A stretch of 64,000 bases of DNA from Pasteurellaceae bacterium RH1A (GTDB lineage Bacteria; Pseudomonadota; Gammaproteobacteria; Enterobacterales; Pasteurellaceae): contig CP015195.1 of NCBI GenBank assembly GCA_012221805.1, positions 1,287,771 through 1,351,770 on the forward strand, in the 5' to 3' direction. The translations under genes and the position numbers were made by a program. Position 1 is the first letter of the stretch. Each line of letters starts with the position of its first letter. The notes under the pieces were generated by a model. The model made no database searches. It was not told the DNA's origin and saw only the letters and a list, made by a program, of their open reading frames with translations. Below, one piece after another: positions 6,432-64,000 of the stretch.

Positions 6432-8939
6432 ATGGATAAGCGTTTGTCTCAAACCAGCCTTAGCCCAGAAAATATTGACCGCATTAAGCGGGCCATTCTA
6501 CAAAAAATGATCTATGCCCTGGGCGTTGAACCCCAAGAGGCCAGCCGCCGCAACTGGCTCAATGCTGCCATTCGGGTGGTGCGTGACCTTTCTACCGAAA
6601 CCTGGCTCCAAACCCGCCGCAGCCAGGCCGCTAACGTAAACCGCCGGGTTTACTACCTCTCTATGGAATTTTTGATGGGCCGTACCTTCAGCAATGCCAT
6701 GATTTCTGAAAACGTGTATGAACTGATGAAGGCCGCTCTTGAAGAGCTGGGCCAGGACTTTGATGAAATCATCAATGAAGAAGGCGATCCAGGCCTGGGC
6801 AACGGCGGTTTAGGCCGCTTGGCTGCTTGTTATATGGACAGCCTAGCTGCCATGAAGATCCCAGCCATTGGCTATGGTATCCGCTATGAGTACGGTATGT
6901 TCCGCCAAGAAATCAAAGATGGCGAGCAAATCGAACACCCAGACCACTGGTTAGACAAGGAATTTGCCTGGTCTTACCTGCGTTCCAGCAAACGCTTCCC
7001 CGTCCGTTTCGGTGGCCAAGCCTGGAAAGAGGGCGACAAGGCCTTCTGGAACCCAGCCGAAGAAATTTTAGCCGTGGGCCACGATGATCTAATCCCAGGC
7101 TACAATGTGAACGTGACCAACAGCCTGCGTTTGTGGTCTGCCCACGCTGGTAACAAGGCCTTTGGCTTGGCCGACTTCAACCGTGGCGACTACTTCTCTG
7201 CCATCAGCCAACAAACCAGCTCGGAAAACGTTTCCCGTGTCCTCTATCCAGACGACTCCACCTACAACGGCCGTGAGCTACGTTTACGCCAAGAATACTT
7301 CCTCTGCTCGGCCTCAGTGCAAGACATCGTCCGTCGCCACGAAGCCGAAGCCGGTTCTTGCCGTAACCTGGCTGATAAAGTCGCTATTCATCTTAACGAC
7401 ACCCACCCAACCCTGGCCATTCCAGAGTTAATGCGGATCTTAATTGATGAGAAGGGCTACAGCTGGGAGTTGGCCTGGAACATGACCCGCAAGATCTTCT
7501 TCTACACCAACCACACCCTGATGAGCGAGGCCTTGGAAACCTGGCCAGTTGAGATGATCGGTCGCATTTTGCCACGCCACCTGCAAATCATCCTCGAAAT
7601 CAACGAATGGTTCTTAAAAGAAGTGCGTGAGAAATTCCAGGATGAAGAGCTCGTCCGCCGAGTTTCCATTATTGATGAAAGCGGCGAACGCCGTGTACGG
7701 ATGGCCTGGTTGGCCGTGATTGCCTCTGGCAAGGTCAATGGCGTGGCCAAGATCCACTCTGATCTCATGGTTGATTCCATCTTTGCCGACTTTGCCCGTA
7801 TCTATCCAGACCGCTTCACCAACGTGACCAATGGTGTTACCCCTCGCCGCTGGATTGCCATTGCCAACCCAGGCCTGGCCGAAATTCTAGACAAACATAT
7901 CGGCAGCGGCTGGCGGGCAGATCTGGAGCAACTCAGCAAGTTCAACGACTTTGTGGACAACGAAGATGTTCAGGCTGAAATCGCTGCCGTTAAAGTGGAA
8001 AACAAACGCCGCCTAGCCGACTATGTGGAACGCACCCAGGGCATCAAGCTCAACCCTGAAGCCATCTTCGATGTGCAGATCAAGCGTATTCACAAGTACA
8101 AACGCCAACAGATGAATGTGCTCAACATCATCACCCACTACAACCGCATCCTCAAAAACCCTGAGGGCAACTGGCAACCACGCGTCTTTATCTTCGCAGG
8201 TAAGGCCGCCAGTGCCTACTATGCGGCCAAGAAGATCATCCGCCTCATCAACGATGTGGCCAAGGTCATCAACAACGACAGCCGAGTACGTGATTTAATT
8301 AAAGTAGTCTTTATCCCGAACTACAGCGTAACGCTTGCTCAAATGATCATCCCAGCGGCCGATGTATCTGAGCAAATTTCCCTAGCAGGCACCGAGGCTT
8401 CAGGTACCTCTAATATGAAATTTGCCCTCAATGGTGCCTTGACTGTGGGAACGCTTGACGGGGCCAACGTGGAAATTCTAGACCGGGTGGGCAGCGAAAA
8501 CATCTTTATCTTCGGTAACACCGTAGAACAGGTGGAAGAGATCCGCCGCCAGGGCTACAACCCGCAAGACTACCTCAACCAGGATGAAGAACTGCGTGAA
8601 GCCATCTCCCAAATCCACAACGGCTTCTTTAGCCCAGAAGATCCATACCGCTACCACGACATTCTACAACCGTGGGGCGACTACTATCAGGCCTTCGCCG
8701 ACTACCGCAGCTATGTGGACACCCAGGTAGCCGTGGCCAATGCCTTTAAGGACAAAAAAGCCTGGACAAGATCTGCCATCATCAACATCGCCAACATGGG
8801 CTACTTCTCCTCCGACCGCTCGGTCATGGACTATGCCCGTGACATCTGGAAGATTGAGCCGATGAGTGATATTGCCCTCAAGCAGTCTATGATCCAAGAG
8901 GTCTTGGAAGATTCTGCGGCTGAAGTGAAGGTGGGGTAA
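6432..8939 (+). CDS. glgP: Glycogen/maltodextrin phosphorylase
   Basis: 835-residue PLP-dependent alpha-glucan phosphorylase (GT35) that releases glucose-1-phosphate from glycogen or maltodextrin. Signatures include [19 protein letters not shown] near the N-terminus, [36 protein letters not shown], and the PLP-lysine segment [14 protein letters not shown] (about residue 660-675). A good ribosome site (CAGGAGT) precedes the ATG. It is slightly longer than E. coli GlgP (815). It stands alone: no glgB, glgX, glgC or glgA adjoins it, so the glycogen operon order of H. influenzae is not kept. GlgP and MalP are hard to separate by eye; residue-level similarity to GlgP looks better. Confidence 0.95.
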
Positions 8940-8946
8940 AGACCAA

Positions 8947-8973
8947 GATAGCGCCAGCCTCTAGGCTGGTGCT
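8947..8973. repeat. Palindromic repeat, family A, single lobe
   Basis: Begins GATAGCGCCAGCC and folds into a hairpin (GCCAGCCT / AGGCTGGT). It is one of five copies of a family found at 10359, 40439, 48576 and 53747. Only the left lobe is present here. It follows glgP directly and may help terminate its transcript. Confidence 0.8.
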
Positions 8974-9024
8974 TCTAATCCATTGATCTATAGTGTTAGC
9001 CTGGAGTGAACTGTCTCCTAGTGC

Positions 9025-10337
9025 TTATACCTGCTCAGCACTCGGCTTTCTCCGCTTACCAATGTTTTTGGTGTCCTTATGGCGAACCTTGGCCTTTTTC
9101 TTGGCTGCCTCTTTTTTCTCTTCCTTTTTCTTCTTGATTCGGGCCTTTTCCTTCTTGGAAATCGTGGCTACCTCGCCATCTTTAGGTGCCTTGGTGCGGG
9201 GTTCTAAGCCCTCTAAAACCCGTGGTTTTAGCTCTTCTTGTAGGTAACGCTTGATCTTGCCCAAGAGCTTGTAGTCGTGGGCTTCCACCAAGGACACTGC
9301 TGAGCCCTTTTTACCCGCCCGAGCCGTGCGACCAATTCTGTGCAGGTAGGTATCAGCACTGTAGGGCAGATCGAAGTTGATGACAAAATCCACATCTTCA
9401 ATATCAATCCCCGAGCAGCGACATCCGTAGCCACCAAGACATTAACCACACCCTCTTTGAGGCGATCAATAGCCTGGTTACGCTGGGTTTGGGCCATTTC
9501 CCCCTCTAGGTAGGTGGAGCGCAGACCTCTTTTACGCAGGGTTTCACTGAGTTCCCGCACGGTTTCACGACGGCGGACAAAGACAATGGCTCGCTCCACT
9601 TCAAACTGACTGATAACCCGAGCTAGGAGCTTGGTCTTGTGCTCAAGATTGTCGGCATGGTAGTACCACTGCTGAATTTTCTTGCGTTCCCGGCGGCTGG
9701 GTTCGGCATCCACTTGAACAGGATCGTTTAGGATTCGCTGGGCAAAATCGACCAGGAGTTCGCCCTCAAGGGTGGCCGAAAAGAGCCAGGTATGCTTACG
9801 CCAGCGGGTTTCGGCGGCAATTTGTTCAGCGTCCTGGCCAAAGCCCATTTGGAGCATGCGGTCGGCTTCATCAAAAATTAAGACCTCTACTGCCCGGCAA
9901 TCGAAATTTTCTTCCTTGATATATTGAAGCAAGCGGCCAGGGGTGGCAACCACGATATCTTGGTTGGAGTTGAAGATTTCACCGTGGTTTTGATAGGCCA
10001 CGCCCCCTGTGATGGTGGTGATGTCTAATTGGGTGAACTGGGCCAGTTCTTCGGCCTGTTCTGCCACCTGCATGGCCAGCTCACGGGTTGGGGTCAAAAT
10101 CAGCACCCGAGGGGCGCCTGCCTTACGGCGGGGATAGTCCAAGAGGTGTTGAATGGCTGGCAGGAGGAAGGCTGCCGTCTTGCCCGTACCGGTTGGGGCA
10201 GAGCCTAATAAATCCCGCCCTTCTAGGGCCAGGGGAATGGTCTGCTCCTGAATGGCGGTTGGGCGGGTGTAGCCCTTTTTATGTAAGGCCCTAAGAAGCT
10301 CAGGGCTGAGATCGAGGGATTCAAAGTTTGGGATCAT
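9025..10337 (-). pseudogene. srmB: ATP-dependent RNA helicase SrmB, frameshifted
   Basis: SrmB is a DEAD-box helicase that acts early in 50S ribosome assembly. The first reading frame (start 10337, MIPNFESLDLSPELL, with AGGAA upstream) holds motif Q (TRPTAIQEQTIP), Walker A (APTGTGKT), DEAD (IFDEADRM) and SAT (LFSATLEGE). Motif V (VATDVAARG) is cut at a run of four C (9409-9412). After it the expected DFVINFDLP, motif VI ([10 protein letters not shown]) and the lysine-rich tail resume in another frame to 9025. One extra G restores R-G-I-D-I-E-D-V-D. No other lesion is seen. As written, motif VI and the tail would be lost; a sequencing indel is the obvious alternative. Confidence 0.93.
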
Positions 10338-10358
10338 TATGTTTCCTAATCTAAAATG

Positions 10359-10424
10359 GATAGCGCCAGCCTCCAGGCTGGTGCTGATAAGCATAAAGGC
10401 ACAAGCGTGGACGCTTGCGCCATC
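10359..10424. repeat. Palindromic repeat, family A, two lobes
   Basis: The left lobe begins GATAGCGCCAGCCTCCAGG and the right lobe ends GCGCCATC, with a short spacer, forming a 66-base BIME-like unit between srmB and rimI. It is closely related to the copies at 48576 and 53747. Confidence 0.85.
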
Positions 10425-10432
10425 AGTTCTAA

Positions 10433-10870
10433 TTACAAATACAAGGCCATCACCACCGCATTTTCCCGCCCGCCGTCTGGGGTAGGGTAGTAGTTCTTGC
10501 GGATGGTCACTTCATTAAAGCCTAGCCTGTCATAAAGAGCCTGGGCGGCCTGGTTGGAGGCTCGAACTTCCAGCCAGAGGGTGGCAATTCCCTTCTCTTT
10601 CAGTTGCAAAATCAACTCATTTAAGAGCTGCTTGCCATAGCCCTGGCCCTGAAAGGCAGGATGGACGGCGATATTAAAGAGGGTCGCCTCATCGAGCACG
10701 GTCTGGCAGATGGCAAAGGCAACAATGTGCCCTCCTTCCACCAGTTTTAGGTTGAGGTACTTGGCGCCCTGGTTATTGAGCAAGGTTCCCTTAGACCAGG
10801 GGACCAAATGGGCGGCTTGTTCAATCTCAAAGAGGCGCTCAAAGTCTTGGGAAGTAACCGTTTCAATCAT
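10433..10870 (-). CDS. rimI: Ribosomal protein S18 alanine N-acetyltransferase RimI
   Basis: 145-residue GNAT acetyltransferase that acetylates the N-terminal alanine of ribosomal protein S18. The acetyl-CoA pyrophosphate loop reads QGQGYGKQLL (about residues 76-85). The C-terminal LWLEVRASNQAAQALYDRLGF is a family hallmark. The start overlaps the 3' end of holD by eight bases, the same holD-rimI order as in E. coli. Confidence 0.96.
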   Translation of the reverse strand: MIETVTSQDFERLFEIEQAAHLVPWSKGTLLNNQGAKYLNLKLVEGGHIVAFAICQTVLDEATLFNIAVHPAFQGQGYGKQLLNELILQLKEKGIATLWLEVRASNQAAQALYDRLGFNEVTIRKNYYPTPDGGRENAVVMALYL

Positions 10871-11282
10871 CAGTAAAAAGACCTAAAAAGGGTTGAAGAG
10901 CCTGCCAAAAGCGGCGTTTATCTTGTGGATGCTGGAGATCCTGCCACTGGTTTTGCCGGATACAAGCGGGCTGATTTGCAAATTTTTTCACAAATTGCCC
11001 CGCTTGTTCTTCCTTTTGAAGCAGCCAAAATAGGGGCTGGTGGCTAATATGCAATCGCAAGGACTGCTCCAGATTGAGCCATTGGTATTGGTGAGGCTTA
11101 AGCCCCAGGCAGTGCAAGATATCCTGAAAGAGGGGGCTTTTTTGCCCATCTTCCTCACAGACCACCACCAATTTGACCTCTGGGCTCAGGCGAATTTGGG
11201 CATCCCCCTTGAGCACCTGGGGTTTCACCAGTTCCCATTGGGTGATCTTCATTTCATGCAGGAGGAGGTCGCGGCGGTTCAT
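10863..11282 (-). CDS. holD: DNA polymerase III psi subunit HolD
   Basis: About 139 residues. HolD links the clamp loader to SSB through the chi subunit. The N-terminus MNRRDLLLHEMKITQWELVKP matches the conserved psi start (RRD...L...GITQW), and the rest is weakly conserved, as usual. I chose the ATG at 11282; an ATG two codons upstream (11288) is equally possible since neither has a clear ribosome site. It is divergent from rsmC and overlaps rimI by eight bases, and the rsmC / holD-rimI arrangement is shared with E. coli. Confidence 0.88.
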   Translation of the reverse strand: MNRRDLLLHEMKITQWELVKPQVLKGDAQIRLSPEVKLVVVCEEDGQKSPLFQDILHCLGLKPHQYQWLNLEQSLRLHISHQPLFWLLQKEEQAGQFVKKFANQPACIRQNQWQDLQHPQDKRRFWQALQPFLGLFTDD

Positions 11283-11314
11283 TTTCATCTAAACAATATC
11301 ATTGAGCATGATTG

Positions 11315-11390
11315 GTAGGGACGCAGACATGCGTCCGCAAACTACATCATTGTATCAATATCGCACGGACGCACGCAGTGCGTCCCTACA
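11315..11390. repeat. Palindromic repeat, family B (GTAGGGACGC)
   Basis: The outer arms GTAGGGACGCA and GTGCGTCCCTAC are inverted, and each arm contains its own hairpin (GACGCA...TGCGTC). This 76-base unit lies between the divergent holD and rsmC genes. Confidence 0.75.
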
Positions 11391-11476
11391 ATACTTTTTC
11401 CATTAAAATATTTTGGGAATGGTAGCAAAACTCGCTACAATGGGGAAATGATTTATTCTTCGTTATTAGGAATTTT

Positions 11477-12454
11477 ATGTTATCTGTCGAAAGTGAAGTC
11501 TTAAGCCGCCATTTAAACTTCTTTGAAGGCAAGTCCTGCCTCTTTTTTGGGGATGTACGGGATGATTTTCGCCCATCTGCCCAGTCTATTCAGGTTTTCT
11601 CCAGCTATTTTGATTTTGCCCGTAGCCGCCAGCAGGTGGAATTTGGCTTCAACTGCCAAGCTCAGGCAGATCTGGCCGTGTTTTACTGGACAAAGAACAA
11701 GCAGGAGTGCCTCTTTCAACTCCTCCAATGGCTTTCAACTGCTCCCCTTGGGCAAAAAATGCTGATCGTGGGGGAAAATCGTGCCGGGGTGCGGTCTGTC
11801 GAAAAACTGCTAGAACCTTACGGGGACATCAGCAAAATAGACTCCGCCCGCCGCTGTGGCCTTTATCTCTTTGAGCTGAAAGAGGCGGCCAGTTTCGATT
11901 GCAAGAAATTCTGGAAATCCTACCGCTTGCAGGACTTAGATATTTTTGCCCTGCCGGCTGTTTTTAGCTCGGCAGAGTTAGACGGAGGCACAAAATTGCT
12001 GCTTTCCACCTTCGACAAGGCCGACCGCCTCAAGGGCAAGGTTCTAGATCTGGGCTGCGGGGCCGGGGTGATTGGGGCCAGCCTCAAGCAGGCCTTCCCT
12101 AAAATCAAGCTGACCATGAGTGATATTCACGCCATGGCCCTGGAATCCAGCCGCTGCACCCTGGCGGAAAACCAACTTGAAGGGGAGGTTCTGGCCAGTG
12201 ATGTTTTCTCCCACATTTCAGATCGTTTCGACCTGATTGTCTCCAACCCTCCCTTCCATGATGGGATTGACACGGCCTACCAGGCGGTCGAAAGCCTGAT
12301 TGCCCAGGCCAAGCAGCATCTGACCAAGGGGGGAGAGCTACGGATTGTGGCCAATGCCTTCTTGCCCTATCCCGATCTGCTTGACCAAGCCTTTGGATCG
12401 CATCAGGTTTTAGCTAAAACGGGGAAATTTAAGGTCTATTCGGCTAGGTCTTAA
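11477..12454 (+). CDS. rsmC: 16S rRNA (guanine-1207-N2)-methyltransferase RsmC
   Basis: 325-residue SAM-dependent methyltransferase modifying G1207 of 16S rRNA in the small subunit. The C-terminal half is the catalytic domain: the SAM loop LDLGCGAGVIGA (about residue 190-202) and the catalytic VSNPPFHDG (about 255-263). The N-terminal half is the degenerate methyltransferase-like domain of this family. TACAAT upstream is a plausible -10. It is divergent from holD-rimI. Confidence 0.95.
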   Translation: MLSVESEVLSRHLNFFEGKSCLFFGDVRDDFRPSAQSIQVFSSYFDFARSRQQVEFGFNCQAQADLAVFYWTKNKQECLFQLLQWLSTAPLGQKMLIVGENRAGVRSVEKLLEPYGDISKIDSARRCGLYLFELKEAASFDCKKFWKSYRLQDLDIFALPAVFSSAELDGGTKLLLSTFDKADRLKGKVLDLGCGAGVIGASLKQAFPKIKLTMSDIHAMALESSRCTLAENQLEGEVLASDVFSHISDRFDLIVSNPPFHDGIDTAYQAVESLIAQAKQHLTKGGELRIVANAFLPYPDLLDQAFGSHQVLAKTGKFKVYSARS

Positions 12455-54955: not shown

Positions 54956-56887
54956 ATGTTCAAAAAAAGCCTTATTGCCAGTATTTTGTTTAGTTCCCTA
55001 GCTTTCGCCAATCCGCCCGCTAAAATGTGGACGGAAGCTGAGGTGCAGGCCCAGCTTACCCAGCAAAAACAGGCAAGTCAAAAGCTAGAGGCCCAACGCC
55101 AGCTCTTTGTTAAGGCCGAAGCCCTACTCAATACGGCCAATTCGCAAAACCGCCTGCCTGAGGCTACCGAAAAGCTCCTAGGTCGCATGATGAGCCAGTT
55201 GGAAACCTATCCCCTCTATGGTGATTTGCAAGCCCTGCTAACCAAGGTTAAAAGCGGCCTTGATAAGCCAAAGGCAGGCCAAACCAAACTGAGCCCAAGT
55301 GAGGCCCAGTGCCAATCTTTTGCCCAGTCCTTCCAGGAGTTAGCAGAAAAACTCCAGCCCAATCCTGAGGCAGAGCAGGCCGGTGCGCTTCCTCCGACCA
55401 AGTCTCTGGAAATGGATAGCCTACTTGACCAATTCGGCCTCTTCTGGCTCAATAGCAATGAGGTGCAAGTGCCGGAGGCCTGCCAGGGAATTGAAGCCTA
55501 CTGGCGGGATCAGGGCCTGAAAACGGAGGGCTTGGTTAAGGATAAAGCGGTCAAATTATTCACAAAATCTGCAAAAAACCTAGCAGACCTAAATGATGAA
55601 CGTATCCAGGCCTGGTTGGATGAAGTCAAAAAGCTGGCCAAGAACCCAGCCTATTTGCAAGAATTTGCCCAAAATCAACCGCTTGATGGCTGGAATAAGG
55701 CCCTAGTGGAAGGAGCCTTTAGTGCCTTTGTTCGCACCCTCAAAGAGCAAGACACCAACCCTGATTTTAGCCCTTATCAAGCCTGGATCAGCAAGTTTGA
55801 ATTAGGGCCAAAGGTGGAAAGAGCCTGGAAAATTGCCTACCTTAACCGCCTTTTTGACAATGAAAACCCGCAGTTTATAGCCTGGCGAGATGAGCAAATC
55901 GGCCAACTCAAGGCCGATAACCTAACCGAACGCCGTATCCGCATGGCTCTGTGGCAAAAGACGGACTTGCAAGGCTGGCTGGATCTGCTTTCTGATGAAG
56001 CTAAGAATAAATTAGAATGGCGCTATTGGTTGGCTAAAACCCACCCAACCGACAAGGAAAAGCTGCTAACCGCCCTTAGCCAAGAAAGGGGCTTTTACCC
56101 CATGCTGGCTGCTCAAGCCCTGGGCAATCCCTACCAATTTAAGGCTCCGCAGGTATCGGCTTCACTTGATGGCTTAGAGACAAAGCTTGCCCAAATTGAG
56201 GAATACCGGGCTTTAAAACGCTTTAGCACGGCCAAGAGCAAGTGGATCGAACTGGTCAAGGCTCAAGGCTTTGAAAGGCAGGTGGTTTTGGCTGATTATG
56301 CCAACCAAGCCGGTTGGTTTGACTTGGGAGTCGAGGCCACCATCCAGGCCAAGGCTTGGGACTATATTGATCAACGCCTGCCCAAGGCCTATCTCGACTG
56401 GTTTGCCCTCCATTTGGCTGACACAAACATCAAGCAGAGTTTTGCTATGGCCATTGCCCGCCAGGAAAGTGCCTGGAACCCGCTGGCCCGCTCCCACGCC
56501 AATGCCATGGGCCTGATGCAGATGCTGCCAACCACGGCCAAGGAAACCGCCCAAAATAGTGGCCTGCTTTACCGGGGCGAACAGGACTTATTCGAGCCTT
56601 TTAACAACATTATGCTGGGTACAGCCCACCTCAACGAACTCAACGCCAAGTACCCCAACAATCGCATTCTGGTTGCCTCGGCCTACAATGCAGGAGCCAG
56701 CAGGGCAGACCGCTGGTTGCAAAGGGCAGGCGGGCGGCTGGCCATGGACGAATTTATCGCCTCCATCCCCTTTTTAGAAACCCGGGGCTATGTGCAAAAT
56801 GTGCTGGCCTACGACTATTACTACCAAATCATTTTAGGTGAACCGGCCCCGGTTATGTTCACCCCTGAAGAATTGAGGACCTACTAA
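54956..56887 (+). CDS. slt: Soluble lytic murein transglycosylase Slt70
   Basis: 643-residue periplasmic enzyme cleaving peptidoglycan to 1,6-anhydro muropeptides. A signal peptide opens it (MFKKSLIASILFSSLAFA). The long helical U-domain covers about residues 25-470, and the catalytic domain has the Glu in IARQESAWNPLARSHANAMGLMQMLP and the AYNAGASRADRWL motif. The start at 54956 is set by the signal peptide. Its stop overlaps the lrp start by one base (TAATG). Confidence 0.95.
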   Translation: MFKKSLIASILFSSLAFANPPAKMWTEAEVQAQLTQQKQASQKLEAQRQLFVKAEALLNTANSQNRLPEATEKLLGRMMSQLETYPLYGDLQALLTKVKSGLDKPKAGQTKLSPSEAQCQSFAQSFQELAEKLQPNPEAEQAGALPPTKSLEMDSLLDQFGLFWLNSNEVQVPEACQGIEAYWRDQGLKTEGLVKDKAVKLFTKSAKNLADLNDERIQAWLDEVKKLAKNPAYLQEFAQNQPLDGWNKALVEGAFSAFVRTLKEQDTNPDFSPYQAWISKFELGPKVERAWKIAYLNRLFDNENPQFIAWRDEQIGQLKADNLTERRIRMALWQKTDLQGWLDLLSDEAKNKLEWRYWLAKTHPTDKEKLLTALSQERGFYPMLAAQALGNPYQFKAPQVSASLDGLETKLAQIEEYRALKRFSTAKSKWIELVKAQGFERQVVLADYANQAGWFDLGVEATIQAKAWDYIDQRLPKAYLDWFALHLADTNIKQSFAMAIARQESAWNPLARSHANAMGLMQMLPTTAKETAQNSGLLYRGEQDLFEPFNNIMLGTAHLNELNAKYPNNRILVASAYNAGASRADRWLQRAGGRLAMDEFIASIPFLETRGYVQNVLAYDYYYQIILGEPAPVMFTPEELRTY

Positions 56888-57366
56888 TGGAAAAGAAACT
56901 GCCCAAGGCCCTAGATGCCATTGATCTCAAAATCTTAAATGAGCTACAACGTAACGGAAAAATCTCCAATATTGAGCTGTCCAAGCGGGTTGGCCTTTCC
57001 CCAACTCCGTGTTTAGAGCGGGTCAAACGCCTAGAAAAGCAAAATGTGATCATGGGCTACCGGGCCTTGCTCAACCCAGAATTGCTGGATACGCCGCTTC
57101 TGGTTATTGTTGAAATTACCCTGGTGCGGGGCAAGCCGGATGTTTTTGAGGAATTTAATCACGCTGTCCAACAGCTAGACGAAATCCAAGAATGCCACCT
57201 GGTATCGGGCGATTTTGACTACCTCCTTAAAACCCGAGTGGCCGATATGGCTGCTTACCGTAAACTGCTGGGCACAACCTTGCTCCGCCTGCCAGGCGTG
57301 AACGACACCCGCACCTATGTGGTGATGGAGGAGGTTAAGCAGACTAATTATTTATTGTTACGCTAA
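56887..57366 (+). CDS. lrp: Leucine-responsive regulatory protein
   Basis: 159-residue AsnC/Lrp-family regulator. The helix-turn-helix lies at about residues 25-50 (ISNIELSKRVGLSPTPCLERV), followed by the RAM ligand domain (VIVEITLVRGKPDVFEEF; ECHLVSGDFDYLLK). Translation is coupled to slt. It is convergent with the helicase gene; only a few bases separate the stops. Confidence 0.95.
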   Translation: MEKKLPKALDAIDLKILNELQRNGKISNIELSKRVGLSPTPCLERVKRLEKQNVIMGYRALLNPELLDTPLLVIVEITLVRGKPDVFEEFNHAVQQLDEIQECHLVSGDFDYLLKTRVADMAAYRKLLGTTLLRLPGVNDTRTYVVMEEVKQTNYLLLR

Positions 57367-57372
57367 ACATCT

Positions 57373-60228
57373 TTAACTTATCTGCCATCTGATCGCAAAC
57401 ACCTGTTCCACAGAGGTTTTTTGTTTGAGTTTGCGATCAATTTCCGCAATTAGCTCATCTTTTTTGTCTTCGATTTCGTCTTCCAATTCCTCACGCTCAT
57501 TGCGTAGGCGGCGGATAGATCTTTCGATTACCTTTTGTGCTTCAAGACACTGTTTTTGCTCTGTCAGATCCCCTGCTAAACGTGCCGCTTTTTTCGCCTC
57601 TCGCAATTCCTCCTTGGCCTCCTCAATTTTCAGGGTGGCAGTCGCAAGGGTATCTTCTGCCCAAGCATCAATCCTCTCCATTTGGGTTTGGATCAGATCC
57701 TTATTTTGCTCGGCCAATTGAGCGATTTTGGCGTCAATACTACGTCTAGCCTGGTCATCTAGGCTAAGCGGTGGAATTTGTTGTATTTTTTGCATATCCG
57801 CCGGCAGGGAGAGGAGTTTTTGGCAGAAGTCCTGATCCAGCCATTGGCCTTGGTCGTTGCAGGCGGTAAAGATTAGCTCTTCCTGTAACTGAGCCTCTGA
57901 ACGAGTTTGCATCTTGTCTAGTCGCAACCAGCCAGATTGCCCCTTGGCCTGTTCTATCACGCTTAATTTGGCATCGTATTGATCTAACTTAAATCTTAAT
58001 TCTACAATGTCTTGGGTATTGGCAGCCAAGGCTTGAGTCAGGCACCATTCCCCTAAGGTACTATTAAGACGGTGGAGGTGGTAGGCAGTTGATACTGCCT
58101 TATCTTGAGCACTAATCAGGCGGTATCTGCCCTGAGGAATGGCCAGATCTGGGCTATGGGTAAGCAAGAACTGATGGCTCTGTTCAAAGATGGCTCGTTC
58201 GCTTAAAGCAAATTGGCTGACTGCCCAGAATTGTCGGCTCATCTTATCCAAGCGATCAGTCAGGGCGTTTTTCAGGAGGTTGAGCACATCTTCATCAAAA
58301 TGCTTAAAGAGTTCGGTGCGGGTGCGTTCCAGCTGGTCTTGGATTTGCTGGTCTAATTCTGCCTGCAAGCGGTCGAAGGCCGCCTGGATTTCTTCTGGCG
58401 TACGGCATTGGTCGTAGATGGCAGCAATTTGGCGTTCAATATCCAATCCAGACTCAATCTTGCCTAAGATCTTATCAGAAGCCCCGAATACCCCCTCAAA
58501 GAGCGCAAATTTTTGGGCCAGTAACTGTAAAACCCGTTTATCTGCTTCGTTACGGTTATTGAGGAAATTAATCACTACCACATCAAATTTTTGCCCATAA
58601 CGGTGGCAACGTCCAATCCGTTGTTCCACCCTTTGTGGGTTCCAGGGCAGGTCGTAGTTAATCAGGAGCGAGCAGAATTGCAGATTGACCCCTTCGGCTC
58701 CTGCCTCAGTGGCAATCATAATGCTGGCCTGATGTTTGAAATGGTCAATAAGGGCAGTTCGCTTGTCCACATCAATAGAGCCTGTCGCTTGTTCAAGGTT
58801 GGTTTGTAACCAATTTTGATAGATAGCTTGGCTATGAGAGCTGCTATTTGTGCCGCTAAACATCACCACTTCTTGTGCATAACCATGTTGGTTGAGAAAA
58901 TCAAAGAGATACTGTTGGGTTTTAACGGATTCAGTAAAGATAATGGCCTTTCTCTGGGCGCCCAGCTGGGCCATCTTGCCAAAGCCAACATCTAGGGCTC
59001 TTAAAAGGGCCTTGATTTTGCTGTCTTCGCCTAAATGATGGGCCTGCTCAATAAAGCCTTGAATTTCAGCAATTTCGGCTTTTAAGCGGCCTAATTTTTC
59101 ATCTTCACTCTCATTTTTTGAGATTTCTTCAAGCTCTTCAATCTGTTCAGGCTGGTTGTGACTTTCATCATCCCAATCCTCGTAATCGCTGCTTAAATCT
59201 TCCTCTTGCCAGAGATCAAGCGGGGCATTTTCTTGGAAATTTTGCAAAAGATTTTGCAGACGTGCCAAAATAGTTTGCAGGGTGGCTGCAATGGCCCTTG
59301 GGCTGGAGGCCAGGAGCTTGCGCAAAATCAAGCCGGTTAAATGGCGCTGACTCGCAGGCAGGGCAAAGGTATTGGTACGCCGTAGAAAATCAGAAATTTG
59401 CTCATAAAAGGCCAATTCTTTTTCGGTTGGCTCAAAGGTTTGCGTGACGGCCTGGCGTTTCGTGTAGCGCACATATTCCAGCACATCTGCCCGCAAGGTG
59501 CGTTTCACATAGGGGCTTAGGCGATCCTTGAGTTCCTCCAAACGGCCCTGATTAACATAGGCCTTGCGGAACTGCTTGGCCTCACCAAAGAGGTAATCAT
59601 CTAAAAAGGTTGATAGGCCATAAAGCTCCATCAGGGAATTTTGTAGCGGGGTGGCGGTAAGCAGGATCTTCTTACAGTGGGCAAAGGTGTCCCGAATGGC
59701 CTTGCCCATCTTATTGCTTTTTTGATGGGCATTACGCAATTTATGGGCCTCATCAATAGCCACCAAGTCCCAGGCCTGCAAGAGTAGCGTGCTACTTTGT
59801 TGGGCAACAAAGTGATGTGAAACAATCAAGACCTGTTTTCCAGTATGTTGATTGAAAAAGGCTTGTGGCTTTAAACCGCTCTTTTTTATCACAGTTTTAT
59901 CCACAACCAGACTAGGTAGGTTAAATTTTTCCTGCAACTCATTGGCCCATTGCTTGCGTAAACTGGCCGGGCAGACCACCATAAGCTGGCGTTTGCGTTC
60001 TGCCCAAAGCTGACAGAGGATCAAGCCTGCCTCAATGGTTTTACCCAAGCCCACCTCATCAGCCAGCAAGACCCCTTGCTGCAAGGGGTTTTTAAGGGCA
60101 AAGAGGGCAGCGTCAATTTGGTGGGGGTTGAGATCCACTTGGGCATCAAATAAGGAGCGGGAAATATCTTGGGCCCGATTAAGCGTGATGTCTAAGGCAT
60201 AGTATTTAGCGTGATAAGGGGTAATCAT
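57373..60228 (-). CDS. SNF2-family helicase, third gene of an R-M-like operon
   Basis: 951-residue Swi2/Snf2-like ATPase. Motif I is DEVGLGKT (57-64), motif II DEAH (159-162), motif III LTATPLQNS, motif V ATEAGAEGVNLQ and motif VI QRIGRCHRYGQ, all intact. There is an acidic insert (about 345-375, EEDLSSDYEDWDDESHN) between the two lobes and a long charged coiled coil at the C-terminus (about 845-940). It resembles HepA/RapA-type helicases, but lacks their N-terminal Tudor-like domains. It overlaps the res-like gene by four bases (ATGA), so it is translated with it. No nuclease motif was seen. Confidence 0.88.
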   Translation of the reverse strand: MITPYHAKYYALDITLNRAQDISRSLFDAQVDLNPHQIDAALFALKNPLQQGVLLADEVGLGKTIEAGLILCQLWAERKRQLMVVCPASLRKQWANELQEKFNLPSLVVDKTVIKKSGLKPQAFFNQHTGKQVLIVSHHFVAQQSSTLLLQAWDLVAIDEAHKLRNAHQKSNKMGKAIRDTFAHCKKILLTATPLQNSLMELYGLSTFLDDYLFGEAKQFRKAYVNQGRLEELKDRLSPYVKRTLRADVLEYVRYTKRQAVTQTFEPTEKELAFYEQISDFLRRTNTFALPASQRHLTGLILRKLLASSPRAIAATLQTILARLQNLLQNFQENAPLDLWQEEDLSSDYEDWDDESHNQPEQIEELEEISKNESEDEKLGRLKAEIAEIQGFIEQAHHLGEDSKIKALLRALDVGFGKMAQLGAQRKAIIFTESVKTQQYLFDFLNQHGYAQEVVMFSGTNSSSHSQAIYQNWLQTNLEQATGSIDVDKRTALIDHFKHQASIMIATEAGAEGVNLQFCSLLINYDLPWNPQRVEQRIGRCHRYGQKFDVVVINFLNNRNEADKRVLQLLAQKFALFEGVFGASDKILGKIESGLDIERQIAAIYDQCRTPEEIQAAFDRLQAELDQQIQDQLERTRTELFKHFDEDVLNLLKNALTDRLDKMSRQFWAVSQFALSERAIFEQSHQFLLTHSPDLAIPQGRYRLISAQDKAVSTAYHLHRLNSTLGEWCLTQALAANTQDIVELRFKLDQYDAKLSVIEQAKGQSGWLRLDKMQTRSEAQLQEELIFTACNDQGQWLDQDFCQKLLSLPADMQKIQQIPPLSLDDQARRSIDAKIAQLAEQNKDLIQTQMERIDAWAEDTLATATLKIEEAKEELREAKKAARLAGDLTEQKQCLEAQKVIERSIRRLRNEREELEDEIEDKKDELIAEIDRKLKQKTSVEQVFAIRWQIS

Positions 60229-63200
60229 AGAGTTTTCTCCAATATTTGATGGAAGAGTTGGTTTAAATAATCCTCATCTGTCATAAACAAAATATGTTTT
60301 TCAGCAAATTCATCTTCTGCCCAGTCGTCCAAATCACTACGCTTGGTAATGGCAAGAATAAAGCTGTTTAAAATTAAGTCTGGGCCTAATTGGGCCTGTA
60401 ATTTCTCCAGTTCCTGATGGAGTTGGAATTTAGGGTCGCTCTTGCCCATTCGCCCGATTCCCTTAGGATCAATAAAGGTCAGCCACTGTTTGCCGCTTTG
60501 ATGATCCACTATCCAGACCAGAAAATCCGGGTAGAAATTATCGGCACTGGCAAAGCCCAGCCCCTTGGCCCTATTGCCCGCATTACGCATTAAATAGAGG
60601 GACTTATTGGGCAAGAGCTGTTTGAGGTCTGCTTTTTGCAGATCCTGCAAGAAGTCAAATTCACTTTTCTCCTTAAGGGCGATAGGGGTTAGGGTAAAAG
60701 GTAATTGCTCTCCCTTGGCACTGTCTTGCAAAAAGAGGGGATAATACAAGTGCTCCTTGATGGTAAAGGCAATGAGCTGGTTCTGATCATCCGTCCATCG
60801 GCGCACCTGCTCCAAATCCCCTTGTTCAACCAGGGTTTTTAGCTGCTCAATTTTGACCAGGCTATCTTCATCGGTAAACCTAAATTGATAGCTGTTAAGA
60901 AGGGATAGGTTATGCTCATCCACTTCAACCACCTCATAATGCTGGCTTTCATAAAGCTGTTTAACCTTGTTATAAAAACGTTGGGTATAGATTTTAAGCA
61001 GCTCGATAAGCAGGTTTTCCAGGGCCACAAGTTTGCTCACTTGATTAACAACCAAACTTTCAGGCGGGATATAGAGCTGATACCAATCCTGCGAATGTTC
61101 GACAAAATGGCGTAATTTATCCCGGTCTAGCCGCAAATTGTAGTAGCCCTCTTGCTGCTTAAATTGCCAGAGGGCGAGATAGATCCTATCCCAGTTAAAG
61201 AGCGGCAGAATATGGCTTGGGATTTTGCCCTCAAGCCGTTGATCTTGCTTAGTGCTTACGCTGGTTTGGCTACTGATGGCCTCCACTCTTGGGTAGGCAT
61301 CCAAGACGGCCAAGAGGTTGCGGGGCTTGATTTTGCCCTCATATTCAGGCGGCATTTCATACAGATTGAGGGGCTGCACCCGCTTAAAGGCCTTGGCCCG
61401 TAGACCCCGGTATTCCTCTTTGAGCCTGAGGGTTTTAAGGCCGGGTGGAATTTGGTGTTTGACTGGGAAATCCAGAGTTAACACGGCTTCTTGCTCCAAC
61501 TCCTCTTGAATATATTTTTGGAACTCGGCCATATAGTCGGCCTTGATCCCGAAAATATTGAGGGTTTCCAGCTCCCGCAAATGTAGCGCCCTTACCTCTT
61601 TTTCAGCATAATTGGAACGTTTTAAGGAAAAATCCCGCCCCTTGAGCCGCACGCCCCGCCCGAAGAGCTGGATAATTTGTGCCCCTTCCGACCGACCCAT
61701 ATTGAGCAGGCCCATGGTGGAGACCCGCCAGCTAGACCAGCCCTCGCTAAACTTACGCGAGCCAATTAAGAGGTTAATCGAACTCTCTTTTTTATTGATC
61801 TTCTCAAAGAGCCTTTCACTAAACTCATCATTTTGGGTGGCTAGGCCCTGTTCGCCGGCCTGTTTAAAGAGGGCAGCATCATCGCCTACATTAATCACGC
61901 CAAAGACTTGTTCTCCCACTTTTAAGGCCAATTCGCCCGGGCTTTTTTTCACATTCACCAAGGTCAAATGTTGCAAAAAATCGGCCTGAAAGACCCGCTT
62001 GAGCACATCTTGGTACAAACCCTCTAGGTCCTTTTTCCACTCTGCCAAGGCCCTAAAGCGATGGAGGAAAATGCTCTTGCCCTGCTTATCTAGAAGCTGG
62101 GCAGAGTCTTCTAGGAGGGCCCTAAACCAGGCCAAAATAGCCGGCTTATTTTCAGGCTTTAAGAAGTCGTTAAGCAGGTGCAAGACCTGTAAAATATCCG
62201 AATCTTCCTTGTTGACCGTATTGCCTACAAAGACCCAGAGGGGATTTTCCAGGTTGTAAGCGGTCAAGTTTTCCCGATTTTTCTCAAAGAGATAGCGCTG
62301 CTGATAAAAGGCCAGCAAACAGGCCCAGAAATAGGTTTGAGCGTGCTGATCGTAGTATTCGGCCTTCATATTGAGAATAAGATGTTCCTTGCCGTAGCCA
62401 TCACGGTAGAAATACTTATAGGAATAATCGAACAAGATGGCCTTGGCATAGGTTTCATAGAGGCGGTTGGCCTTTTTGTAGGTCCCAACGGCTTGGCCAA
62501 AGGTGGCAGAGTATTCAAAGGCAAAGCCTGAGCCTATCATCTGCTCCCGCCGCTTGAGCCATTCTTCGCCTTTGGCTCCCCGGTGGCCTTCGTCCACCAA
62601 AATCAGCTTATTGCCGTCTGCAAAGGCTTCCACCGCCACGGTTTTGTCGCCAGACTTATCGGCCAATTTATGAATATCGATCACCTTAATATCGGCATAG
62701 TCCAGGCTGCCGTTTTTATCAAAGAGGGCAGCCTCCATATTAGAAGCCTGAAATTCCTCAATATGCTGGAGGGAGAGACCATCGTTAGGGGTGAGCAAGT
62801 AAATCTGCAACTTCTCCTTCTGGTGGGGGGCAGCATAGTGCTGGAATTGCAGAATATTGACGTGCATAAGCAGGGTCTTGCCGCTGCCGGTGGCATTCCA
62901 AAAGGCGATCTTATTTAAGTCTTGCTCGGTATAAGGTGGCAGGGCCAAGCCCTCCTTGGCCTGATTTTCCCCTAATTGCTGGTTAAGGGCAGCCAAGAGG
63001 CGGTCTTTTTGATTGAAATACCAGTCCAAATAAATTTCCGTAAAGAGGAGGGAAAGATACTGGAAGTATTTAAGGGCTAAAATATGCCCACTTTCCTGGT
63101 TACGGCCATGGGTAATCTTGGCCCAGTGCTGGACGATGTTAAAGTCATAACGGCTTAGATCCTGCTGGCTAATCAGATCCGTATGGAAAAGCTGCTGGTT

Positions 63201-63368
63201 CAGGGCCAGGAAAAAGTGGCTGTGGCCGGTGTGAGGGTCTATGCCCTCACAATCGCCCAGACGGGTTTTAAAGGCGGCCAGATCTGCCTGATTAAAGAGG
63301 GATAAGGCCCACTGGTTAAGCACCAAGTCCTGATGAAAGCTGCGTTTGGTTATGGGTTTCTTGGCCAT
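60225..63368 (-). CDS. Type III restriction enzyme Res-like helicase-nuclease
   Basis: 1047 residues. Superfamily 2 helicase motifs: I in ATGSGKT (159-165), II in DEGH (259-262), III in EYSATFG, VI in QLFGRGVRLKG. Near the C-terminus FYPDFLVWIVDHQSGKQWLTFIDPKG gives the P-D-x(n)-D-x-K nuclease pattern, as in type III Res subunits. The DEGH box is a variant of DEAD/DEAH. The gene follows the methyltransferase after one base and overlaps the SNF2 gene by four. It probably cuts DNA lacking the partner's methylation; target unknown. Confidence 0.88.
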   Translation of the reverse strand: MAKKPITKRSFHQDLVLNQWALSLFNQADLAAFKTRLGDCEGIDPHTGHSHFFLALNQQLFHTDLISQQDLSRYDFNIVQHWAKITHGRNQESGHILALKYFQYLSLLFTEIYLDWYFNQKDRLLAALNQQLGENQAKEGLALPPYTEQDLNKIAFWNATGSGKTLLMHVNILQFQHYAAPHQKEKLQIYLLTPNDGLSLQHIEEFQASNMEAALFDKNGSLDYADIKVIDIHKLADKSGDKTVAVEAFADGNKLILVDEGHRGAKGEEWLKRREQMIGSGFAFEYSATFGQAVGTYKKANRLYETYAKAILFDYSYKYFYRDGYGKEHLILNMKAEYYDQHAQTYFWACLLAFYQQRYLFEKNRENLTAYNLENPLWVFVGNTVNKEDSDILQVLHLLNDFLKPENKPAILAWFRALLEDSAQLLDKQGKSIFLHRFRALAEWKKDLEGLYQDVLKRVFQADFLQHLTLVNVKKSPGELALKVGEQVFGVINVGDDAALFKQAGEQGLATQNDEFSERLFEKINKKESSINLLIGSRKFSEGWSSWRVSTMGLLNMGRSEGAQIIQLFGRGVRLKGRDFSLKRSNYAEKEVRALHLRELETLNIFGIKADYMAEFQKYIQEELEQEAVLTLDFPVKHQIPPGLKTLRLKEEYRGLRAKAFKRVQPLNLYEMPPEYEGKIKPRNLLAVLDAYPRVEAISSQTSVSTKQDQRLEGKIPSHILPLFNWDRIYLALWQFKQQEGYYNLRLDRDKLRHFVEHSQDWYQLYIPPESLVVNQVSKLVALENLLIELLKIYTQRFYNKVKQLYESQHYEVVEVDEHNLSLLNSYQFRFTDEDSLVKIEQLKTLVEQGDLEQVRRWTDDQNQLIAFTIKEHLYYPLFLQDSAKGEQLPFTLTPIALKEKSEFDFLQDLQKADLKQLLPNKSLYLMRNAGNRAKGLGFASADNFYPDFLVWIVDHQSGKQWLTFIDPKGIGRMGKSDPKFQLHQELEKLQAQLGPDLILNSFILAITKRSDLDDWAEDEFAEKHILFMTDEDYLNQLFHQILEKTL

Positions 63369-63369
63369 T

Positions 63370-64000
63370 TTATGCTCCGAACATGAGGTTTAAAAATTCC
63401 GGTTCGAGGGCCTGGATATTAAGCATGGCCACATCACCTGCTGCATTGATTTCCCACTGATTAACCAAGCTGTGATCACCATTGAGATAGACCAGGTCAA
63501 ACTCGCTATCCTTAGGATTAAGGGCTAATTTGTCAAAGAGGGCATTCAGGTTGTCGTAATGCCAACGGCTGCAATCCCGCCAAATAACCAAGCAGCGCTG
63601 GCCATTAGCCAAACGCCCCTCCACGGCCACATAGCCCTCACTTTCTGCCCGATGGCGGATATTTTCCACCCGTAAACCTAAGAGATAATTAAAGGTTTCC
63701 ACTAGGTCGATGGCCTGCTTGCGGTAGGCCCCAGCCGAATCGGTCGCAATTTTCAGCTCATAATCAAAGGGCTGTTTGAAATCTTCCACAGAAAGCAGGC
63801 TGCCCCGGCTTTCCACATCCAGCATATAGTGGAGCAGATAATCTTTTGCAAAATCTTGGCCAAAGAGATCCGCTTGCCCGGCGGTTAATTCCAGGTTATT
63901 AAGGGTGTCTTCATAGCTTTCTAACTTAAGCACCTTAACCATTTGCGACAGGCCACCCAAACCGCCATTGGCAGACGGTAGAGGCTTGCCCTCCTTCCAA
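63370..64000 (-). CDS. Site-specific DNA methyltransferase, C-terminal part, cut by the right edge
   Basis: The frame is open from 63370 to the window edge (about 209 residues visible, no start codon needed). Text such as WKEGKPLPSANGG, QMVKVLKLESYEDTLNNL, DYLLHYMLDVESRGS and AIDLVETFNYLLGLRVE is the C-terminal region of type III/Mod-like adenine methyltransferases. The catalytic DPPY and SAM motifs would lie outside the window. The first internal ATG/TTG is only a track artefact of the truncated frame. The stop is one base from the start of the res-like gene. Confidence 0.85.
   Translation of the reverse strand, partial: WKEGKPLPSANGGLGGLSQMVKVLKLESYEDTLNNLELTAGQADLFGQDFAKDYLLHYMLDVESRGSLLSVEDFKQPFDYELKIATDSAGAYRKQAIDLVETFNYLLGLRVENIRHRAESEGYVAVEGRLANGQRCLVIWRDCSRWHYDNLNALFDKLALNPKDSEFDLVYLNGDHSLVNQWEINAAGDVAMLNIQALEPEFLNLMFGA

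What the first reader, a model, noticed from the sequence alone, without database searches (positions are those of the whole stretch)
57373..64000. Tightly coupled methyltransferase - Res-like nuclease - SNF2 helicase operon
A Mod-type methyltransferase and a PD-D-x-K helicase make a plausible type III restriction pair. Here a second, full-length SNF2-family ATPase is translated with them (one-base gap, then an ATGA overlap). Standard type III systems need only mod and res. All SF2 motifs of the third protein are intact and it has an acidic insert and a long C-terminal coiled coil, so it is probably a working part. DISARM and other known systems also use SNF2-like helicases, but their drmA/B/C partners are not seen. 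A possible role is removal of bound proteins or remodelling of stalled complexes during restriction. The 5' part of the operon is outside the window.
Basis: partly seen in the sequence, partly recalled or inferred. Interest (0 to 1): 0.8.

Follow-up and report, generated by a model that had tools for sequence, protein, structure and literature searches.

The report
Type III restriction operon with RapA-like motor
This is a complete DNA-cutting bacterial defence operon (a type III restriction-modification pair) that carries a third gene for a RapA-like DNA motor; the same motor travels with such pairs across at least a dozen bacterial phyla, so it is probably a working but so far unnamed part of the defence.

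Summary
The operon is complete just past the window edge: mod (966 aa), res (1047 aa) and a SNF2-family ATPase (951 aa), with a one-base gap and an ATGA overlap, its own promoter-like site, and a terminator-like hairpin separating it from truB. Mod and Res are a type III pair with catalytic motifs intact.

The SNF2 protein has the full RapA architecture without RapA's N-terminal domain, and no conserved nuclease residues. It is related to the DISARM helicase DrmD, but fails NCBIfam's DrmD cut-offs and has no drmA/drmB beside it.

The association is real. In 369 genomes of the class, 22 carry this SNF2. In 18, mod and/or res lie on the same contig within 10 kb; in the other 4 the contig ends first. 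A cross-phylum set gives about 59 of 62. The reverse does not hold: many type III pairs lack the SNF2, so it is an accessory. Closely similar SNF2 proteins (83%) accompany unrelated mod-res pairs, so the motor swaps partners.

Best reading: an accessory double-stranded-DNA motor that clears or remodels protein-DNA complexes for type III restriction. The association is shown; the function is inferred. I found no named system for it in the open literature searched.

The parts
57373..60228 (-). SNF2-family ATPase, 951 aa, RapA architecture without RapA's N-terminal domain; third gene of the operon
   Evidence: ORF; Pfam SNF2-rel_dom 4e-37 and Helicase_C 4e-19; AF2 model aligns end to end with RapA 122-966
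58354..60171 (-). two-lobed SWI2/SNF2 motor core of the SNF2 protein (aa 20-625)
   Evidence: motifs DEVGLGKT, DEAH, LTATP, EQRIGRxHRYGQ conserved in 14 and 44 aligned homologues
59113..59211 (-). acidic, disordered linker between the two motor lobes (about aa 340-372)
   Evidence: pLDDT about 50; net charge -9 to -23 in 44 homologues over aa 325-383
   Evidence: length 114-118 in all 44 homologues
60225..63368 (-). type III Res subunit, 1047 aa (subfamily A)
   Evidence: PADLOC REase_III PDLC03654 E 1e-281; ResIII Pfam; alignment A2
62874..62897 (-). Res Walker A, NATGSGKT (aa 158-165)
   Evidence: invariant columns A159 T160 G161 G163 K164 T165
60462..60530 (-). Res PD-(D/E)xK nuclease residues PD (aa 947-948) and DPK (aa 967-969)
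   Evidence: P947, D948 and P968 invariant, D967 and K969 nearly so, in 12 Res proteins
63370..64000 (-). 3' part of type III Mod; the complete gene is 966 aa and starts beyond the window at about 66270 (genome C1:1354040)
   Evidence: DPPY (435-438) and FAGSG (709-713) motifs in alignment A5; Pfam N6_N4_Mtase 1e-33
56887..57366 (+). flanking Lrp-family regulator, convergent; not part of the operon
   Evidence: conserved in 37 of 41 genomes of the family and order

Best explanation
The locus is a complete type III restriction-modification system (subfamily A) with a conserved accessory double-stranded-DNA motor. Mod recognises and methylates an asymmetric site; Mod-Res recognises unmethylated sites, hydrolyses ATP, moves along DNA and cuts when two complexes meet. 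The third protein is a RapA-like SWI2/SNF2 translocase with no nuclease site of its own. It most likely moves on the target DNA and clears or remodels protein-DNA complexes: proteins that block the sliding Mod-Res complex, or spent Mod-Res complexes left on DNA, the latter by analogy with RapA recycling RNA polymerase. Shown: the genes, intact motifs, operon, RapA architecture, conserved association and partner exchange. Established knowledge: the type III mechanism and RapA's role. Inferred: that the motor acts during restriction, and on what.
For: Translational coupling of all three genes. Mod/Res family and motifs. Full-length structural match to RapA, 716-728 residues aligned, Z about 21, RapA residues 122-966; sequence E 2e-53 to RapA. 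No acidic or lysine column conserved in aa 660-820, so no nuclease site in the region that corresponds to RapA's Spacer. Class census: 22 SNF2 genomes, 18 with mod and/or res on the same contig within 10 kb, 4 with contig ends. Cross-phylum set: 61 of 80 loci with mod/res, 59 of about 62 testable in the family clade, at least 12 phyla. Distances of SNF2 correlate with Res (r 0.70 A, 0.88 B, 0.96 C) and Mod (0.65, 0.66, 0.91), permutations at least as high 0-2 of 2000. Same SNF2 clade with unrelated Res families: L034 (type C) and L099 (type A) SNF2 83% identical; 9 partner changes on the tree.
Against: No experiment. The mod-res families also occur without SNF2 (A: adjacent in 3 of 9 genomes; B: 10 of 21; C: about 2 of 26), so it is not needed for restriction as such. 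Swapping between Res families with no detectable BLASTP similarity argues against one conserved SNF2-Res interface. RapA's target is RNA polymerase, so transcription could be the target instead. Correlated trees also arise from shared transfer.
Confidence: 0.55

Rival explanations
1. The SNF2 is the core of a larger, modular defence system. The motor is the constant part; type III mod-res pairs of different families and various effectors (AIPR, Abi_2, Schlafen, AAA_21+DUF4276, RhuM, YhcG nuclease, Fic) are interchangeable modules that it controls or triggers.
For: Partner swapping. 53 of 85 loci carry extra ORFs between the core genes; representatives of the recurring clusters are defence or toxin families.
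Against: The window has no cargo; mod-res loci without SNF2 also carry extra genes; mod-res occurs without SNF2 but SNF2 hardly ever without mod-res, so mod-res looks like the core.
Confidence: 0.2
2. The motor acts on RNA polymerase on invading DNA, as RapA does on host DNA, stopping phage transcription while Mod-Res cuts.
For: End-to-end RapA architecture. In RapA the motor core itself contacts the RNAP flap tip, and deleting the NTD does not abolish RNAP binding (PMC8501970).
Against: The RapA NTD that contacts the RNAP zinc-binding domain and closes the clamp (PMC8666675) is absent; sequence similarity to RapA is limited to motor motifs.
Confidence: 0.12
3. It is a DrmD acting in trans with the drmA-like and drmB-like genes found elsewhere in this genome, that is, a dispersed DISARM.
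For: DrmD is the best-scoring known family (649 bits); drmA-like and drmB-like genes lie at C1 about 1.015 Mb.
Against: Below the DrmD cut-off (649 against 950), while a true DrmD from a drmA-drmB locus scores 1414; the drmB-like gene is split; relatives of the SNF2 sit with mod-res, not drmAB.
Confidence: 0.05
4. A passenger: an independent single-gene defence that merely shares mobile defence islands with type III systems.
For: Solo or otherwise placed copies exist (L066, L089); cargo is common in these islands.
Against: ATGA overlap and coupled reading here; 18 of 18 testable loci in the class; same direction and mostly conserved order in at least 12 phyla; correlated distances.
Confidence: 0.08

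Closest known systems
Type III restriction-modification (EcoP15I, Mod2Res1/2)
   Same: mod then res, beta-class amino-methyltransferase Mod with DPPY and FxGxG, Res with SF2 motor and C-terminal PD-(D/E)xK
   Different: a third co-translated SNF2 gene; Mod is 966 aa with a long N-terminal region before the MTase domain (which starts at aa 429); Res subfamily A shows no significant BLASTP similarity to the EcoP15I-like subfamily C
DISARM, DrmD (SNF2-like helicase)
   Same: nearest named relatives of the SNF2 protein (PDLC02619 646 bits; NF038318 649 bits)
   Different: below the NCBIfam cut-off of 950; no drmA, drmB or drmC at the locus; separate clade from a DrmD of a real drmA-drmB locus
RapA (HepA), RNA polymerase recycling ATPase
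   Same: full-length fold, motor core plus C-terminal domains
   Different: lacks RapA's N-terminal domain (about 120 residues); sits in a restriction operon; 15-19% identity
ARMADA and BREX type 3 / BREX-related systems (BrxHII-like RapA helicases)
   Same: a RapA-type Swi2/Snf2 helicase beside a DNA methyltransferase (PMC12458937, PMC12839542)
   Different: ARMADA has a PglX-like methyltransferase and a YprA-like helicase, BREX has PglZ and BrxC; none is at this locus
Hma (HmaABC)
   Same: three-gene helicase + methyltransferase + ATPase system (PMC8565338)
   Different: HmaA-like score only 185 bits here; Hma has an m5C methyltransferase and no Res

Membership tests
Type III restriction-modification | Mod: beta-class amino-methyltransferase with DPPY and FxGxG | tested here: met
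   D435-P-P-Y438 and F709..G713 invariant in 11 Mods; Pfam N6_N4_Mtase; PADLOC MTase_III
Type III restriction-modification | Res: SF2 motor plus PD-(D/E)xK nuclease | tested here: met
   Walker A, DEGH, SAT, QLFGRGxRL and PD...DPK conserved; REase_III E 1e-281
Type III restriction-modification | mod and res adjacent, co-directional | tested here: met
   one-base gap
Type III restriction-modification | cutting needs two inverted unmethylated sites and ATP | not testable with these tools
   needs purified enzyme
DISARM | DrmD SNF2 helicase above the curated cut-off | tested here: not met
   649 bits against cut-off 950; a true DrmD_b scores 1414
DISARM | drmA and drmB in the locus | tested here: not met
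   flanks are truB, rbfA and Lrp, slt; drmA-like and split drmB-like genes only about 325 kb away
RapA | RapA fold, motor core and C-terminal domains | tested here: met
RapA | N-terminal domain that contacts the RNAP zinc-binding domain | tested here: not met
   model residue 1 aligns at RapA residue 122; no room for the NTD
RapA | NCBIfam RapA cut-off (576) | tested here: not met
   157 bits
BREX / ARMADA | PglX-like methyltransferase with PglZ/BrxC or YprA-like helicase in the locus | tested here: not met
   no such genes among the complete operon and flanks
Hma | HmaB m5C methyltransferase and HmaC ATPase | tested here: not met
   only mod and res accompany the SNF2; HmaA model 185 bits against DrmD 646

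The most novel reading that the evidence does not exclude
A RapA-like motor is the constant core of a broad, unnamed class of defence systems into which unrelated type III mod-res pairs and different effectors are plugged; the motor senses or creates the signal (stalled complexes on invading DNA) that turns both cutting and effectors on.
Probability: 0.15. Interest if true: 0.8.

Novelty: new variant of a known kind. Interest (0 to 1): 0.6.

Why it matters
Type III restriction is taught as a two-subunit system. A large share of subfamilies A and B carry a third, near-obligately associated DNA motor in at least a dozen phyla, including on conjugative plasmids of Klebsiella and Salmonella. If the motor works in restriction, it makes testable how sliding restriction complexes deal with roadblocks and whether they are recycled, and it links type III systems to DISARM and BREX, which use related motors. 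By the model hits seen here, annotation splits such loci into a type III hit and a stray DrmD-like hit.

Tried and rejected
Chance neighbour: rejected by the census. DISARM membership: rejected by the cut-off and gene content. A read-through operon with truB: unlikely, since a terminator-like hairpin and a promoter-like site lie between. Phase-variable mod by simple repeats: no repeat tract in the operon. Second nuclease in SNF2: no conserved acidic/lysine columns in the spacer. Viral carriage: the close-relative scan of viral contigs found nothing, and one 4.5-kb unannotated record matched in the phage collection. Empty-site proof: the Lrp gene is conserved in relatives, but neither truB nor slt lies within 1.5 kb of it there, so the insertion point could not be shown. 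RapA-RNAP contact residues could not be compared, because the sequence alignment covers only the motor motifs. Literature: ten searches and several papers gave no named mod-res-SNF2 system; PMC3632139, PMC3194920, PMC5739279 and PMC2607195 are not held, so prior mention in them is not excluded.
Full report
WHAT IS THERE. The window ends inside the operon, but the genome is one 2.31-Mb contig and the rest was read. On the - strand, in order of transcription: mod (966 aa, ATG), res (1047 aa), SNF2 (951 aa). Mod and res are separated by one base (TAA A ATG); res and SNF2 overlap as ATGA. Upstream in the same direction are rbfA and truB. Between truB and mod lie a hairpin with a U tail (-13.2 kcal/mol, z -3.3) and a sigma-70-like site with a perfect TATAAT, so the three genes look like their own transcription unit. 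Downstream the SNF2 gene converges on an Lrp-family gene. GC is 42.9% for mod, 47.6% for res and 47.2% for SNF2, against 48-50% in the flanks. No simple-repeat tract that would make mod phase-variable was found.

MOD AND RES. Mod has the beta-class order DPPY then FAGSG, invariant in 11 aligned Mods, and matches Pfam N6_N4_Mtase from residue 429, which leaves a conserved N-terminal region of about 400 residues without a Pfam match. Res matches PADLOC REase_III over most of its length (E 1e-281), with Walker A, DEGH, SAT, motif VI and the nuclease residues PD...DPK conserved in the family. No defining sequence feature of type III tested here failed; activity is untested.

THE SNF2 PROTEIN. All SF2 motifs are intact and conserved. 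The AlphaFold model (pLDDT 81) aligns from residue 1 to 951 with E. coli RapA residues 122-966 (716-728 residues, Z about 21). So it is a RapA-type motor without RapA's N-terminal domain, the part that in RapA restrains the ATPase and meets the RNA polymerase zinc-binding domain (PMC8501970, PMC8666675). Its motor core alone also matches many eukaryotic remodellers and ZorD at similar Z, so the core says only 'SNF2 motor'; the end-to-end match is what singles out RapA. The acidic insert is a linker between the two lobes, acidic in every homologue; the coiled coil is two helices of the RapA-type C-terminal domain, of near-constant length. The region that corresponds to RapA's spacer holds no conserved acidic or lysine columns, so the protein has no sign of a nuclease.

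IS THE ASSOCIATION REAL? (1) Close relatives: of 100 genomes (family and order, the window's own included) 11 have the SNF2; the ten others were fetched with flanks, and all carry mod-res. (2) Class sample: of 369 genomes, 22 carry it. Mod and/or res lies on the same contig within 10 kb in 18; in the other 4 the contig ends first. (3) Cross-phylum sample: 80 loci; 61 have mod and/or res, 10 end before it could appear, 8 have none, and 1 is not clearly of the family. Two of the 61 (a DISARM locus and its neighbour on the tree, L095 and L096) and five of the 8 fall outside the family clade on the tree. Inside the clade about 59 of 62 testable loci have mod-res; true exceptions are L066 and L089, while L085 is on a short contig. 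Phyla include Pseudomonadota, Bacillota, Bacteroidota, Planctomycetota, Verrucomicrobiota, Actinomycetota, Acidobacteriota, Spirochaetota, Synergistota, Thermodesulfobacteriota, Nitrospirota and Patescibacteria. (4) Plasmids: 50 PLSDB records, 32 of them conjugative, with SNF2, mod and res together in all six examined, one of them with a fragmented mod.

THE REVERSE. Res subfamily A occurs in 9 of the 369 genomes, with SNF2 adjacent in 3 and on another contig in 2 more; subfamily B in 21, adjacent in 10; subfamily C (EcoP15I-like, with the Pfam RE_endonuc domain) in 26, adjacent in about 2. So the SNF2 nearly always has mod-res, but mod-res often lacks the SNF2: it is an accessory, favoured by subfamilies A and B.

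PARTNER EXCHANGE. The gene order is mostly SNF2-mod-res; the window and several relatives have mod-res-SNF2. On the SNF2 tree the three mod-res subfamilies are clustered but need 9 changes (least possible 2, shuffled mean 30). The sharpest case: SNF2 of L034 and L099 are 83% identical over 974 residues, yet one sits with subfamily C and the other with subfamily A; representatives of those Res subfamilies show no significant BLASTP similarity. Within each subfamily, SNF2 distances follow Res distances (r 0.70, 0.88, 0.96) more closely than Mod distances (0.65, 0.66, 0.91); Mod target-domain swaps could explain the difference.

CARGO. 53 of 85 loci hold further ORFs between the core genes. Representatives of the recurring clusters are AIPR, Schlafen AlbA_2, AAA_21, DUF4276, RhuM, SMC-like ATPase, Abi_2, YhcG nuclease, Fic and Bro-N. 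The window has none: it is the minimal form.

HOW IT MOST LIKELY WORKS. Established: type III complexes recognise unmethylated asymmetric sites, use ATP to enter a long-lived sliding state and cut when two complexes meet (PMC4490356). RapA frees RNA polymerase trapped on DNA (PMC8666675). Inference: the RapA-like motor here acts on protein-DNA complexes during restriction, clearing blocks in front of sliding Mod-Res or removing spent complexes. Exchange among unrelated Res families suggests it acts on DNA or on a feature that all type III complexes share, not through one tailored Res interface. Steps shown: genes, motifs, fold, association, exchange. Steps not shown: any activity, any contact, any effect on phage.

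MEMBERSHIP. Type III: testable sequence features met. DISARM: not met (SNF2 below the DrmD cut-off, 649 against 950, while a DrmD from a real drmA-drmB locus scores 1414; no drmA/B at the locus). RapA: fold met, N-terminal domain and curated cut-off not met. BREX, ARMADA and Hma: partner genes absent. What it works like is a separate question: a RapA-like mode of action remains the best guess.

NOVELTY. In the open papers searched, SNF2 helicases are mentioned in general as helicase subunits of several R-M systems (PMC3710099; PMC2292703), and related motors occur in ARMADA and BREX type 3 (PMC12458937, PMC12839542), but no mod-res-SNF2 system is named. Key defence-island papers were not held, so earlier notice is possible. 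I rate it a new variant of a known kind.

Noticed in passing
L134 (genome C1:1008000-1027000), 6707-11750 +: A drmA-like helicase gene (DISARM_DrmAS 805 bits, cut-off 950) followed by a drmB-like gene split into two ORFs in different frames, then UvrD-like and NERD-helicase genes: a possibly decayed DISARM-like locus about 325 kb from the operon.
   Followed up: partly
L095, 2232-16259: A DISARM locus (drmD, drmA, drmB) of an Erysipelotrichaceae bacterium that also holds a type III-like methyltransferase (PDLC03645), a weakly Res-like helicase and an ORF that reads like a 5mC methyltransferase; a possible link between DISARM and type III systems.
   Followed up: partly
L004 11141-14041 (Mod, aa 1-428): The Mod family of this operon has a conserved N-terminal region of about 400 residues (LDFGIYRILN, FFSRYYDEGDFISQRRYKGDTY) without a Pfam match.
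   Followed up: no
E. coli plasmids, bases 8324-8621 of the L017:11763-21515 query: A 298-bp piece of the Klebsiella plasmid SNF2-mod-res locus, annotated there as a DUF1158 protein, recurs at about 100% identity in many E. coli plasmids, while the whole locus is in only 2 E. coli genomes.
   Followed up: no
L023 and L026: In two relatives the operon is damaged: a stop inside SNF2 and a split res (L023), and an interruption of res by a transposase-like ORF (L026).
   Followed up: no
L117, L129, L132: A recurring protein of about 770 aa (L117 and L129 start MxYEHLxFSRExPLT) sits next to subfamily B mod-res or SNF2; function not identified.
   Followed up: no
L066, 9980-12874: A solitary SNF2 of this family in a Desulfovibrionaceae genome, with no mod or res recognised within 10 kb.
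   Followed up: partly
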